Assembly: GCA_905221615.1 (NCBI GenBank)
Contig: CAJNDT010005924.1
Coordinates: 421,822-485,821 of the forward strand
Source: Symbiodinium sp. CCMP2592
Lineage: Eukaryota; Sar; Dinophyceae; Suessiales; Symbiodiniaceae
Direction of reading: 5' to 3'
Length of the DNA stretch: 64,000 nucleotides
This document shows, in pieces, positions 3,613 to 13,582 of this stretch. Under the pieces are notes generated by a model that ran no database searches, was not told the origin of the DNA, and saw only the letters and a list, made by a program, of their open reading frames with translations. Made by a program: the position numbers and the translations under genes. How positions within the stretch are numbered: position 1 is the first letter of the stretch; each line of letters begins with the position of its first letter.

Positions 3613-3786
3613 GTTCTACATTTCATCTAGCCGCAAAGTATACTCTCACAAATTTCTATAATTCATATATAAACATATTCACATCACGTGTATCACGTTG
3701 CAGTTCGATCCTCTCCTTTTTGGCGGTAAGACACTTCGTGCAGCAGCATAATGTCAAATGCAGATGCAAGAATGTGTACGAACACC
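3613..3786 (-). repeat. YR element 1 terminal repeat B2
   Basis: The 174-bp sequence is identical by eye to B1 (4108-4281) and marks the 3' terminus of the element. It contains a 16-bp word (3623-3638) that is the exact reverse complement of a word in the A repeat. Confidence 0.9.
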
Positions 3787-3994
3787 GGCTGCGGAAGTGT
3801 AAGAGTACCAAAAGCAAGGACCATAAAACAAGTATTGAGATAGCCAAAGATACCACAGGATGTACGCCGGAAGTCGTATGCATTCAATGTCCGCACTTCA
3901 ATGTACAGACAATGTACAATGCACTGGTGTCTTGACTATGCACCGTAAGACATGCATAACGCAAGTGCCACACCACACAGGGCGGGCGGGCGGG

Positions 3995-4107
3995 GCCTTT
4001 CTTGACCCTTCTCTGCTCGAGCAGCTTTGCGGCTAGATGAGCAACAAGGATGAAACATCATGCGTTAGAATACAAATGTAAAACAGTTTTGAGCAAGCAC
4101 AAAAAGC
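3995..4107 (-). repeat. YR element 1 internal repeat A2
   Basis: The 113-bp sequence is identical by eye to A1 (13470-13582). It joins B1 directly at 4107/4108, giving the B1A2 unit expected at the recombination junction. The interval 3787-3994 between B2 and A2 is element-specific spacer with no gene seen. Confidence 0.9.
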
Positions 4108-4281
4108 GTTCTACATTTCATCTAGCCGCAAAGTATACTCTCACAAATTTCTATAATTCATATATAAACATATTCACATCACGTGTATCACGTTGCAGTT
4201 CGATCCTCTCCTTTTTGGCGGTAAGACACTTCGTGCAGCAGCATAATGTCAAATGCAGATGCAAGAATGTGTACGAACACC
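4108..4281 (-). repeat. YR element 1 internal repeat B1
   Basis: Identical by eye to B2 (3613-3786). It lies downstream of the Pol stop at 4715; the 433 bp between them is 3' untranslated sequence with no ORF supported by motifs. Confidence 0.9.
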
Positions 4282-4714
4282 AGGACTGTAAACTGCCACA
4301 AAGGAGAGGTCGGACTCGCAAGCGCTGCACTCCCACTACCGAAACGTGAGGCCGACAGAACCTGAGTGGGCATTCCGCCCAAAGAAACGTCACCGCATAC
4401 GGTTGAAGAGAAAGCAAGGTATATGAGAAGCATAAAGTACTCAACTATCAGTGACGCCCTGCGTATGCAAGCAGACCAAGTTGCCTGCCACTCATGCCTA
4501 TCGCGTTCACTGATGCATGTTCTGCATCTCACAACACCGCCCTCAGGGGAACGCATGTGCTCACGGGGGAAGGCAAGCCGACCGCGCGCCGTGAGTGTCG
4601 AACCCCGACGATGATGCACATCAACACCGGTGTTGCAGGAGCCCCAAGAGCCCACGGGGGAAGGCCAGGCCGACCGCGCACCGTGAGATGTTGAACCTGC
4701 CCGATGCCGAGTGC

Positions 4715-10676: not shown

Positions 10677-13046
10677 TCAGCCGGCCGATGCAAAAATTTT
10701 ATGGCAAGCTGGATGACGGCATAGCCTGGACCCGGGTGCGAAAGACATGGACAGTTGAAGATTCTTGCACAACGTGCCACAAGCTGGACGCACGAGACCT
10801 GCCTTGCAAGGAGTGCCATGGGATGAAGGCATGGCCACATGCATGACACCTGAACCGCTCACCAAGTAACCAAACTCCTCGGGAGCGCCCAAAGATTCTG
10901 CTGCTGATTCCGAATCTGAAGACACCAAAGCATGCTCGTTCAAGAATGCATTATCTTCCGCCTGCGAAGGCTGGACGTCGGCAGTGGCCTGCGGAAGCAG
11001 CGCCTGCTCGACCGCCACGGAAGGCACATGCGCTCCTGCTGCATTCTCCGGTACAGAAACATGCACTGGACCGAAAATGGGCGGAACCTCAAAAAAAGGC
11101 GGCACGGCTTCTAAGGTGCACAACGGTTGCTGAGGAATCGAATGAGCTGCCCCCCGCTTCTGCGGGGCAGGAGGCAGCCATCCGGCCCGTACTGCTGTGC
11201 AGACAACGGCCTGAGCTCTGAGCGCCCCCACAGTGTCTGATCTGCTATATAATGAAGCGCTGTCGAGGCGATGATGCCCCGCTGAGAGTCTATCCTCCTT
11301 CCCCACTGCCCGAAGGTGCATAAGATACAGCAAAGCCGACTTCAAGGAATGCAGAGTGAAGACTGACTCCGCCCCAGTGGCGCAAGCACCGGATGCCACG
11401 CACCAAGATCGCAGCACTCGCAGCGACTGTGCGTAGGATAAGGGCGCAAAATCACCTGTCGCCTCGTCGAACCGAAACCAGACACAGTCAGGATCAATGC
11501 TGTCGCCATGCATATCGCGCAATCGATGCCAGACTTCACCAAGCGCAACTAGCCAAGCTGAAACCCAAGTGAACTCCAAAATATCCGCAGTACCATGGAA
11601 ACCCATAACCCCCGCTGCCAGCGGCATGCCCTTGCGCGTGGTTTTGGTCTTGAAGGCCTCTGCCCTAATGCAATCGGCACACACTTCGAAGGATGACCAC
11701 CGAATGCGCTGGGAATCCGACCACCTCAAGGAGGCGTGTGCACACAAGAGCAAAGCACCCGCGTGACACCTGTCCTGCAAAGACATCTGAGCCTCCAAGA
11801 GCATCACCTCACAATATGACATCAATCTGATCGGAACCGGATATGATTCTCTATGTGGTTGAACTCGAGGGGCCAGCAACATGGCCACGAGCCCATTGTA
11901 AAGATCAGGAAGGTGCAAATTGAGCATCCGACGGAACCATCGAAGGGCTTTGATGGTGTTGACGGGCTGAAAGTCGGCTGCCGAGTGCCCCCGGTGGGTC
12001 GCCCAAAGCATATCAACCAATTGCGCCTGATTAAGCTGATCAATTGCTGGCAAATCAAGCTCAAACCCTGCCCTAAAAACCGCTAAGACTGCCGTCATGT
12101 ACCGCAAGAGTGTGGAAGGCGCCAAAGTGTTGAAGAACTTTTCAGTAAGCAAAAGCTCATTCGTGGAGCTCGACATCTGAAGGAGCACATCAGAATGATC
12201 CAAGAGAATCGGCTTGAGTTCCAACCATAAAGCCTGAGCCAACTGAAGCTTCTTGGCATCATGCTGCACTGCAAACTCCACAGTCCCACTGCCCTTAGTA
12301 GGCCTAAAATTCGTCCCTGCATGAAAAATGCCACTGCTCATTGCCTCACGTCCTGCTGGGTGCTCAAGAAATGAATGCTGCTGAGGCGGGCGAAGGGCAC
12401 GCTTGCATGTCGGCCTGACAAATGCACTAGCCTGAGGTTGGGGATCTGCTGCAACCGAGCGCTCGTGATGGAACAAGGACCTGGATGCCGGTGATGCATG
12501 CATCGCGGGACGGGGAGCAGGACTAAACCCAAGACCTTCCGAACTAACATGGTGCAACATTGTCGGCCGCATACACGGTCGAAGGGATGCAAGACTAGTA
12601 GGACGTACACCCTGGGCCGGCAGAGGAATCTTTGTGCGCTTCAAGGGTTGCATGAGTACGGGACGGGGTGCAGGCTTATCCGAAACCCATAAACCCTTAC
12701 TTGAGAAAATGCGCTCTGGTGCCATTACTTCATCAGACAAAACCCACTCGAAGGAATCCAAATCAAATGAAGACACACTTGGTGCCACAGCCGGCACGAG
12801 GGCAGCCTGATCGCCTGCATTCGAATCTACCACGGAAACTGCCTCAACAGCAGAAGCATCACGCTTGAGAAGACGAGCAGCACGCCGGGCCCAAGGCGTG
12901 GTAGCCGTAGCACTGTCCTGTGTTTCAGGAACAAACGGCAATGGAGCCGCCACCTGTGAATTCTCATCTGGCACCGCAAGAACATTTGCAGCTGGAGCTG
13001 CATGTTGCCTAGCCTGCAACACCTTTTCAAGCAAAACAAGTGCCAT
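10677..13046 (-). CDS. YR element 1 tyrosine recombinase
   Basis: A 789-codon frame from ATG 13046. Residues 1-290 are low-complexity and probably unstructured. The catalytic half resembles tyrosine recombinases: R441 in HASLRWSDSQRI, basic KTKTTRK near 466-472, H566-S-L-K569 in place of the usual HxxR, H591/H592 in AGHHRL, and candidate nucleophile Y600 in SLYSRSD. The C terminus is Cys/His-rich (CGTLCKN, CRHPACHK), a likely zinc ribbon. It should integrate the circular DNA intermediate by site-specific strand exchange. The Lys for the second catalytic Arg also occurs in element 2, so it is probably a lineage trait rather than damage. It is the second ORF from the element's 5' end, followed by gag. 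Confidence 0.82.
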   Translation of the reverse strand: MALVLLEKVLQARQHAAPAANVLAVPDENSQVAAPLPFVPETQDSATATTPWARRAARLLKRDASAVEAVSVVDSNAGDQAALVPAVAPSVSSFDLDSFEWVLSDEVMAPERIFSSKGLWVSDKPAPRPVLMQPLKRTKIPLPAQGVRPTSLASLRPCMRPTMLHHVSSEGLGFSPAPRPAMHASPASRSLFHHERSVAADPQPQASAFVRPTCKRALRPPQQHSFLEHPAGREAMSSGIFHAGTNFRPTKGSGTVEFAVQHDAKKLQLAQALWLELKPILLDHSDVLLQMSSSTNELLLTEKFFNTLAPSTLLRYMTAVLAVFRAGFELDLPAIDQLNQAQLVDMLWATHRGHSAADFQPVNTIKALRWFRRMLNLHLPDLYNGLVAMLLAPRVQPHRESYPVPIRLMSYCEVMLLEAQMSLQDRCHAGALLLCAHASLRWSDSQRIRWSSFEVCADCIRAEAFKTKTTRKGMPLAAGVMGFHGTADILEFTWVSAWLVALGEVWHRLRDMHGDSIDPDCVWFRFDEATGDFAPLSYAQSLRVLRSWCVASGACATGAESVFTLHSLKSALLYLMHLRAVGKEDRLSAGHHRLDSASLYSRSDTVGALRAQAVVCTAVRAGWLPPAPQKRGAAHSIPQQPLCTLEAVPPFFEVPPIFGPVHVSVPENAAGAHVPSVAVEQALLPQATADVQPSQAEDNAFLNEHALVSSDSESAAESLGAPEEFGYLVSGSGVMHVAMPSSHGTPCKAGLVRPACGTLCKNLQLSMSFAPGSRLCRHPACHKIFASAG

Positions 13047-13049
13047 GAA

Positions 13050-13331
13050 TCACAAGTTGTCTCGAAGCTGGCTAAAGATCGAACGCAGATGTTGTATGAA
13101 CTGCTCCAACCAACTGAGGCGTCTGTCTGAAACCTCGCGCGAGGACTCAAGTGACTGGATCCTTTCTTCAAGATATGCTTGCGTATCGGTTAAGATCTGA
13201 TTCTGCTCTCGCAAATAATTCAACTGAATCTGCAAGTCAAACACGTGGCGAGAGATCTCTGATACTGTGCTAACCGACGAACTCGGAGGATCACTGGCCG
13301 GGCTTGCTGCACCGGACGAGGGCTCCGCCAT
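13050..13331 (-). CDS. small coiled-coil protein at the 5' end of YR element 1
   Basis: A 93-codon frame from ATG 13331, ending 3 bases before the recombinase ATG. Residues about 20-90 are heptad-like and charged (LQIQLNYLREQNQIL, EERIQSLESSREV), so a dimerising coiled coil is likely. It lies between terminal repeat A1 and the recombinase gene. It could be an accessory or Gag-like oligomerisation protein, or an upstream exon of the recombinase. No family recognised. Confidence 0.5.
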   Translation of the reverse strand: MAEPSSGAASPASDPPSSSVSTVSEISRHVFDLQIQLNYLREQNQILTDTQAYLEERIQSLESSREVSDRRLSWLEQFIQHLRSIFSQLRDNL

Positions 13332-13469
13332 GCGAGACCCCCCTTTGAGGATACCAACTCGCTACCTAAGCAAGTTCAATGGAAAGTGAATGTAGATACA
13401 ATGTCTTACATAAAATGACCAAGACTCATGAGTCGTCGACAAACCAAGAAGCACACAGACATGCATGAT

Positions 13470-13582
13470 GCCTTTCTTGACCCTTCTCTGCTCGAGCAGC
13501 TTTGCGGCTAGATGAGCAACAAGGATGAAACATCATGCGTTAGAATACAAATGTAAAACAGTTTTGAGCAAGCACAAAAAGC
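13470..13582 (-). repeat. YR element 1 terminal repeat A1
   Basis: Identical by eye to A2 (3995-4107) over 113 bp. It forms the 5' terminus of the element on the minus strand and would contain the start of the genomic RNA. Confidence 0.9.

What the first reader, a model, noticed from the sequence alone, without database searches (positions are those of the whole stretch)
3613..13582. YR retrotransposon encoding both a dioxygenase-like and a methyltransferase-like domain
Pol of element 1 starts with a domain carrying the full HxD...H...R set of 2OG-Fe(II) oxygenases (H189, D191, H253, R262), followed by a Pro-Cys methyltransferase-like domain (C390), then RT and RNase H. An element with a potential writer and a potential eraser/oxidiser of DNA or RNA modification in one polyprotein would be remarkable. 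Residues are seen; the functions and the pairing as a modify/demodify system are inference.
Basis: partly seen in the sequence, partly recalled or inferred. Interest (0 to 1): 0.93.

Follow-up and report, generated by a model that had tools for sequence, protein, structure and literature searches.

The report
Retrotransposon with TET-like oxidase and methyltransferase
A jumping gene in a coral-symbiont-type alga carries, in the same protein that copies it into DNA, one part that looks like an enzyme adding methyl groups to DNA and one that looks like an enzyme oxidising them, so it may chemically disguise its own DNA copy.

Summary
The finding holds up, with refinements. The element (minus strand, 13582 to 3613) has exact A1-coding-B1-A2-B2 split repeats and an open 1331-codon Pol. 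The bare HxD...H...R pattern alone means nothing: 1034 of 2000 shuffled Pols contain it. The case rests on other evidence. All four residues are kept in the 5 of 16 Pol homologues that cover the domain. Pfam's only match for the window's domain is Tet_JBP, below cut-off. The predicted beta-rich fold matches best the TET enzyme CcTet, with AlkB close behind. Two TET base-contact positions are invariant and AlkB's second arginine is absent. The second domain is remotely homologous to short phage C5-cytosine methyltransferases by profile comparison; its fold search was inconclusive. DNMT3 in Symbiodinium DIRS elements, AlkB in orchid Gypsy and TET in fungal DNA transposons are in print; a 2025 fungal survey found no retrotransposon with TET/JBP. 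Activity, substrate and cooperation of the two domains are inferred. This copy's Gag frame is broken.

The parts
13470..13582 (-). A1 repeat, 5' end of element 1
   Evidence: 113 nt, 100% identical to 3995-4107
13053..13331 (-). small ORF (93 codons, coiled-coil-looking by eye), same frame as the next ORF, ended by TGA
   Evidence: read from the sequence
10680..13049 (-). putative tyrosine recombinase ORF (790 aa; RWSD at 442, HSLK at 567, GHHR at 591, Tyr601)
   Evidence: no Pfam hit; aligns HSLK...HH...Y with element 2's YR (Pfam Phage_integrase E 2.8e-4, below cut-off) at only 7% hhalign probability, reversed-sequence control 0.13%; motif roles recalled
8714..9931 (-). Gag-like ORF, CCCH zinc-finger-like stretch near its C-terminus; ends in TGA in frame with Pol
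   Evidence: zf-CCCH_10 E 0.0022, below cut-off; its N-terminal part (to 9984) lies in another frame, unlike P0003/P0008/P0010/P0012
4718..8710 (-). Pol, 1331 codons open
7835..8395 (-). TET/JBP-like 2OG-Fe(II) dioxygenase domain, Pol residues 106-292
   Evidence: Pfam Tet_JBP E 0.002, below cut-off; fold search top CcTet; 51 of 187 columns invariant in five Pols incl. the window's
8126..8134 (-).
   Evidence: kept in 5 of 5 homologues covering it
8117..8119 (-). N198, H+5, position of CMD1 Asp350 / HsTET2 Asn1387 / NgTET1 Asp234
7940..7942 (-).
7913..7915 (-).
7895..7897 (-). Y272, R+6, position of HsTET2 Tyr1902 / NgTET1 Phe295
6986..7738 (-). C5-methyltransferase-like domain, Pol residues 325-575
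   Evidence: hhalign to seven phage MTases 90.7% over 65 columns, to element 2's MTase-like domain 97.5% over 217 columns
7529..7531 (-).
   Evidence: invariant in 7 of 7 rows incl. the window; SPPC in 14 of 16 homologues, P0016 starts after it, P0007 covers the region without that exact string
7340..7342 (-). E457 of LEQPRN, aligned with IENP (motif VI) through element 2
   Evidence: LEQxRN in 14 of 16 homologues
5771..6520 (-). reverse transcriptase, YVDD at Pol 910-913
   Evidence: Pfam RVT_1 E 2e-4 at 838-956, below cut-off; 59-96% identity to four relatives over 731-980
4841..5308 (-). RNase H-like region (DACAKG...ETLAQ...WSDNSG...HIAGCHN..AD)
   Evidence: by eye and recalled motif only; no Pfam hit
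4108..4281 (-). B1 repeat
   Evidence: 174 nt, 100% identical to 3613-3786
3995..4107 (-). A2 repeat, directly abutting B1
3613..3786 (-). B2 repeat, 3' end of element 1; 208 nt lie between A2 and B2
4025..4133 (.). 16-nt inverted repeat CTTTGCGGCTAGATGA (4118-4133 minus, 4025-4040 plus) facing each other across the B1/A2 junction; single arms at 3623-3638 and 13500-13515
   Evidence: 4 matches in the window, 0.01 expected

Best explanation
Element 1 is a YR-type (DIRS/Ngaro-like) retrotransposon of a Symbiodinium-type dinoflagellate whose Pol carries a TET/JBP-like dioxygenase and a phage-type C5-methyltransferase-like domain in front of RT. Most likely mechanism: during or after reverse transcription, before the recombinase inserts the DNA, the methyltransferase methylates cytosines of the element's own cDNA and the dioxygenase oxidises 5-methylpyrimidines on it (5mC to 5hmC, or thymine to 5hmU), so that the unintegrated copy resembles the host's heavily modified DNA or resists host nucleases or silencing. 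Shown here: the architecture, residue conservation, fold resemblance and remote homology. Inferred: enzymatic activity, substrate, and action on the cDNA.
Confidence: 0.5

Rival explanations
1. Eraser model: the dioxygenase oxidises 5mC laid by the host (or by the element's own MTase) at integrated copies, and so keeps the element expressed, as proposed for fungal TET+ DNA transposons.
For: Kojima 2025 proposes escape from methylation-based silencing for TET+ DNA transposons (PMC12730594, abstract and passages). Most of the Symbiodinium genome is CG-methylated (PMC5890265 abstract).
Against: The domain sits inside a Pol that works on cDNA and RNA, next to a methyltransferase that would work against it. 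CpG observed/expected of the element (0.77) is like two neighbouring stretches (0.71, 0.74), so no special CpG protection is visible.
Confidence: 0.2
2. Thymine-hydroxylase (JBP-like) model: the dioxygenase makes 5hmU from T in the cDNA, independently of the methyltransferase, matching the 5hmU-containing dinoflagellate genome.
For: Same family as JBP. Asn at H+5 could hydrogen-bond O4 of thymine (idea stated for CMD1 D350N in PMC7854593), and the cytosine-N3-reading His at R+8 is replaced by Leu/Ile in 5 of 5 rows. 5hmU enriched in repeats.
Against: The same passage says that neither wild-type CMD1 nor D350N was active on unmethylated CpG DNA (the passage was cut there). HsTET2 also has Asn at that position and acts on 5mC. 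No substrate data.
Confidence: 0.2
3. AlkB-like model: the domain removes N-methyl groups from the element's RNA or single-stranded cDNA, as the ALKBH5-like domain of orchid Gypsy elements does.
For: AlkB/ALKBH structures rank just behind TETs. An orchid Gypsy-encoded 2-ODD demethylates m6A RNA in vitro (PMC9289625, passages). CcTet itself also acts on 6mA (PMC12730594).
Against: AlkB's second Arg (ALKBH5 Arg277/Arg283 spacing) is Tyr in 5 of 5 rows. No AlkB Pfam family was matched; Tet_JBP was.
Confidence: 0.15
4. One or both domains have lost catalysis and serve as nucleic-acid-binding parts of Pol.
For: The MTase has E-Q instead of E-N in motif VI and no PF00145 match; one homologue covering the region, P0007, lacks the exact SPPC string; the dioxygenase evolves faster than RT (35-44% against 59-87% identity in P0006, P0009 and P0015).
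Against: The metal and 2OG residues, SPPC and the Glu are unchanged in P0006, P0009 and P0015, which differ from the window at 56-65% of dioxygenase and 35-51% of MTase positions.
Confidence: 0.1

Closest known systems
SymbioDIRS-Dnmt3 (de Mendoza et al. 2018, PMC5890265; sections 6 and 10 read, outline and find passages seen)
   Same: Symbiodinium YR retrotransposon with A-coding-B-A-B repeats, cytosine-MTase domain inside Pol with RT, recombinase in a separate ORF, shuffled ORF order reported.
   Different: Its MTase belongs to eukaryotic Dnmt3 and was found with Pfam PF00145; element 1's is a short phage-type domain with no PF00145 match. The words TET and dioxygenase do not occur in that paper's main text.
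Fungal TET+ DNA transposons (KDZ, EnSpm, Helitron and others; Kojima 2025, PMC12730594; passages seen)
   Same: A TET/JBP-family dioxygenase gene carried by a mobile element.
   Different: DNA transposons, not retrotransposons. [quoted passage not shown] its survey is of fungi.
Orchid Ty3/Gypsy elements with an ALKBH5-like domain (PMC9289625; passages seen)
   Same: A 2OG-Fe(II) dioxygenase domain in a retrotransposon, active in vitro.
   Different: AlkB family, LTR element, domain in ORF2; no methyltransferase of the element is mentioned in the passages seen.
Phage C5-methyltransferase plus TET/JBP hypermodification sets (statement in PMC12730594)
   Same: Pairing of a C5 MTase with a TET/JBP oxidiser; element 1's MTase is related to short phage C5 MTases.
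   Different: Phage-encoded and working with glycosyltransferases; here fused in one reverse-transcriptase polyprotein, with no glycosyltransferase among the Pfam hits of its three long ORFs.
DIRS elements with a Dam-like N6-adenine MTase (noted in PMC5890265; details recalled)
   Same: YR retroelement with a methyltransferase.
   Different: Adenine MTase, structurally unrelated to cytosine DNMTs; its position after RNase H is recalled.

Membership tests
TET/JBP dioxygenases | HxD...H Fe ligands and 2OG arginine in a double-stranded beta-helix | tested here: met
   Residues kept in 5 of 5 homologues covering them. HxD (model 98-100) lies between strands 86-91 and 108-119, H at 162 and R at 171 on strands 162-164 and 167-177; 13 of 19 ten-residue blocks have pLDDT 74-93. 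Best fold match CcTet. Ligand clustering not measured in 3D.
TET/JBP dioxygenases | Pfam PF12851 at the curated cut-off | tested here: not met
   17.4-17.8 bits against 34.9; E 0.002-0.0028; 3 of 5 members match below cut-off. Remote relative at best.
TET/JBP dioxygenases | Base-contact residues (Asn/Asp at H+5, aromatic at R+6, His at R+8) | tested here: inconclusive
   First two kept in 5 of 5 rows; His at R+8 replaced by Leu/Ile in 5 of 5, though CMD1 also differs there (Arg418).
TET/JBP dioxygenases | Oxidation of 5mC or T | not testable with these tools
   -
AlkB dioxygenases | Second conserved arginine (R-x5-R) | tested here: not met
   Tyr at R+6 in 5 of 5 rows; spacing from the ALKBH5 legend in PMC9289625. 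The fold alone does not exclude AlkB.
C5-cytosine DNA methyltransferases | Motif I (F-D/E-L-F-G), motif IV Pro-Cys, motif VI Glu | tested here: met
   FLD...GA, SPPC and LEQxRN invariant in 7 of 7 rows incl. the window; SPPC and LEQxRN each in 14 of 16 homologues; aligned to phage motifs, LEQPRN through element 2. Motif VI reads E-Q, not E-N.
C5-cytosine DNA methyltransferases | Homology to PF00145 members | tested here: inconclusive
   No direct PF00145 hit. hhalign to seven phage MTases 90.7% over 65 columns; element 2 links the rest (97.5% over 217 and 96.2% over 175 columns). One of the seven checked against Pfam: PF00145 E 4e-9; five of seven are annotated DNA methylase/methyltransferase, two are unannotated.
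C5-cytosine DNA methyltransferases | MTase fold | tested here: inconclusive
YR (DIRS/Ngaro-type) retrotransposons | Split direct repeats A1-coding-B1-A2-B2 | tested here: met
   both pairs 100% identical.
YR (DIRS/Ngaro-type) retrotransposons | Tyrosine recombinase | tested here: inconclusive
   Candidate ORF 13049-10680 has RWSD and HSLK...GHHR...Y but no Pfam hit; HxxK rather than HxxR; weak alignment to element 2's YR.
YR (DIRS/Ngaro-type) retrotransposons | RT and RNase H in Pol | tested here: inconclusive
   RVT_1 E 2e-4 below cut-off, YVDD present; RNase H by eye only.
SymbioDIRS-Dnmt3 | Dnmt3-class MTase detected by PF00145 | tested here: not met
   No PF00145 match in Pol or isolated domain. 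No tree with Dnmt3 was built.

The most novel reading that the evidence does not exclude
First retroelement that encodes a complete two-step base hypermodification pathway (C5 methyltransferase plus TET/JBP oxidase) fused to its reverse transcriptase, so that the cDNA is born modified. By extension, elements of this kind could contribute to the unusual modified bases (5hmU, oxidised 5mC) of dinoflagellate DNA.
Probability: 0.33. Interest if true: 0.93.

Novelty: new variant of a known kind. Interest (0 to 1): 0.82.

Why it matters
Mobile elements that bring their own DNA-modifying enzymes are few. A methyltransferase and a TET-like oxidase together in a reverse-transcriptase polyprotein would be the retroelement counterpart of phage base hypermodification, and would be of a kind that a 2025 fungal survey reports not finding (no retrotransposon with TET/JBP). 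It also gives a testable candidate enzyme, in a fitting organism, for the question of what makes 5hmU and other modified bases in dinoflagellates.

Tried and rejected
Bare motif as evidence: rejected, present in 1034 of 2000 shuffled Pols.

Relatives elsewhere: no relative in viral contigs for the dioxygenase alignment or the Pol alignment, none in genome contigs, and no tblastn match in phages up to E 10 for either domain. The domain-only protein search returned 8 short proteins that look like fragments of the same family: P0019 spans all four residues and keeps them; P0020, P0021 and P0024 reach only the HxD and keep it (HxDxxN); P0022 shows only the distal H and R; P0023, P0025 and P0026 do not show either part. 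The region search with P0009 returned P0009 alone, missing relatives already in hand, so its silence means little. PHROGs and NCBIfam gave nothing useful for either domain. The sequence search against PDB gave nothing credible for the dioxygenase profile or the MTase or element 2's MTase.

MTase fold by structure search: SDR Rossmann enzymes tie with DNMT3 and Foldseek gave no PDB match at E 0.001 or better, so I rely on profile alignment instead.

Copia C-terminal extension (29461-33567 ORF) as a third MTase-like domain: hhalign at most 14.2%, not supported.

Readthrough stem-loop after the Gag TGA: z -1.29, longest Watson-Crick stem 7; dropped.

Gain or loss of the dioxygenase: tree of 8 rows, with element 2 on a very long branch, leaves P0017/P0018 against P0009/P0015 unresolved.

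Whole-genome survey (genome search, own): asked nine times in the same form, machine did not complete.
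Full report
What is there. The minus strand from 13582 to 3613 is one retroelement bounded by split direct repeats in the order A1 (13582-13470), coding region, B1 (4281-4108), A2 (4107-3995), 208 nt, B2 (3786-3613). Both repeat pairs are 100% identical, which suggests a young insertion. A 16-nt inverted repeat sits in the repeats and faces itself across the B1/A2 junction; it occurs 4 times in the window against 0.01 expected. Reading 5' to 3', the coding order is a small ORF, a 790-aa putative tyrosine recombinase ORF, a Gag-like ORF with a weak CCCH zinc-finger match, and a 1331-codon Pol in frame with Gag after a single TGA. 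Of 16 homologues of Pol, 12 are named as Symbiodinium sp. CCMP2592, several 98-99% identical over their aligned parts, so the window is from that or a near dinoflagellate; the other four are unnamed ENA proteins.

Checking the observation. The motif as such is uninformative: half of shuffled Pols contain it (1034 of 2000). Of the 16 homologues, five cover the whole dioxygenase domain (P0003, P0006, P0008, P0009, P0015) and 5 of 5 keep H, D, H and R. The other 11 have no HxDxxN: three gene models start after it (P0004, P0005, P0007), four skip it (P0010, P0012, P0013, P0014), and four begin further on or have another N-terminus (P0011, P0016, P0017, P0018). Of 8 short fragments from a domain-only search, one spans and keeps all four residues, three reach only the HxD and keep it, one shows only the distal H and R, and three show neither. 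Domain identity to the window is 95% for P0003, 91% for P0008 and 41, 44 and 35% for P0006, P0009 and P0015. The N-terminus and linker fall to 19-29% in those last three, while RT stays at 59-87%. P0009 stands for 40 and P0015 for 10 database sequences.

Methyltransferase identity. No direct Pfam, PHROGs or NCBIfam match of use. The equivalent domain of element 2 in this window hits a PHROGs DNA methyltransferase weakly (E 0.014) and three inovirus records annotated DNA methyltransferase (E 0.03, 27% of the query). From one of these (a PF00145 protein, E 4e-9) I took, with six of its relatives, seven phage proteins, five annotated as DNA methylase or methyltransferase and two unannotated. hhalign gives 97.5% for element 1 against element 2 over 217 columns, 96.2% for element 2 against the phage set over 175 columns, and 90.7% for element 1 against the phage set over 65 columns. 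Controls (RT, the C-terminal RNase H part, and the dioxygenase) give 1% or less. The alignments superpose motif I, SPPC/APPC, LEQPRN/IENP and the AC.FG...K stretch. C394 and E457 are invariant in 7 of 7 rows including the window; among the 16 homologues 14 contain SPPC and 14 LEQxRN. P0016 starts after both; P0007 covers the first region without the exact string; P0012's gene model skips the second. The domain-only model is poor and its fold search mixes SDR enzymes with DNMT3; among viral models the first match is a phage putative DNA methylase (E 1.9e-3).

How it may work. Inference: YR elements make a DNA copy that is inserted by recombination, so enzymes fused to RT are placed to modify cDNA. 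De Mendoza et al. showed de novo CG methylation by SymbioDIRS-Dnmt3 domains in yeast and proposed cDNA self-methylation. Phages pair C5 MTases with TET/JBP oxidases and glycosyltransferases to make glycosylated cytosine (stated in PMC12730594). I think element 1 does a similar thing: methylate, then oxidise, its own copy. Asn at H+5 and loss of the N3-reading His leave thymine as a possible substrate, which would give 5hmU, a base enriched in repeats of a related alga. None of this is shown.

Results against. Tet_JBP is below threshold and not matched by all members. AlkB is structurally close. The MTase has E-Q in motif VI. Element CpG ratio (0.77) is like two neighbouring stretches (0.71, 0.74), giving no sign of a special methylation history. 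P0018 has the MTase with an unrelated N-terminus, and P0017 starts at the MTase. This copy's Gag is out of frame relative to four relatives near its N-terminus, so this copy may not be autonomous. The recombinase ORF lacks a Pfam hit and has HxxK where the textbook motif (recalled) has HxxR.

Novelty. Ten paper searches were answered, in an open-licence PMC library only. A search for TET, JBP, retrotransposon and dinoflagellate together returned 0 papers. In these I found no report of TET/JBP in a retrotransposon, and one explicit statement that none was found in a fungal survey. Retroelement DNMTs (PMC5890265), AlkB (PMC9289625) and DNA-transposon TETs (PMC12730594) are known, so this is a new variant of a known kind whose combination looks unprecedented within what I could search. 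Papers were seen as follows: PMC5890265 outline, sections 6 and 10 and passages; PMC11071213 section 5 and passages; PMC12730594, PMC9289625 and PMC7854593 passages; PMC11065319 and PMC8670742 were opened for terms and gave none; all others as search listings.

Noticed in passing
15180-20641, minus strand: Element 2: YR, Gag-like and Pol ORFs in the same order; Pol begins with an MTase-like domain (APPCGTFS, IENP) related to phage C5 MTases but no dioxygenase was seen.
   Followed up: partly
29461-33567, minus strand: Copia-like Pol has a C-terminal extension of about 230 aa with STPC, IEWP and HYPELL; it looks MTase-like by eye but profile comparison did not support it.
   Followed up: partly
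10680-13049 and 19748-20641, minus strand: Both YR candidates read HSLK where tyrosine recombinases usually (recalled) have HxxR: a possible lineage-specific change of a catalytic Arg to Lys.
   Followed up: no
13050-13052, 10677-10679, 8711-8713, 4715-4717: The small ORF, YR, Gag and Pol of element 1 each end in TGA, and two pairs of ORFs are in frame across a single TGA (small ORF/YR, Gag/Pol): readthrough or another recoding is possible.
   Followed up: partly
51400-62000: GC drops to 33-42% from 52 kb, with AGT repeats at 51.4-52.0 kb and GAGA repeats from 56 kb; CpG ratio of 52-62 kb is 1.07 against 0.70-0.79 in six other stretches: a different sequence landscape or a join in the assembly.
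   Followed up: no
40955-42163 and 42581-42690: Large-subunit rRNA fragments on both strands and a U6 snRNA (Rfam), the U6 overlapping one arm of a 77-nt inverted repeat.
   Followed up: no
3270-3560: Irregular short repeats (GCACGACACT-like on the minus strand) lie next to the B2 end of element 1.
   Followed up: no
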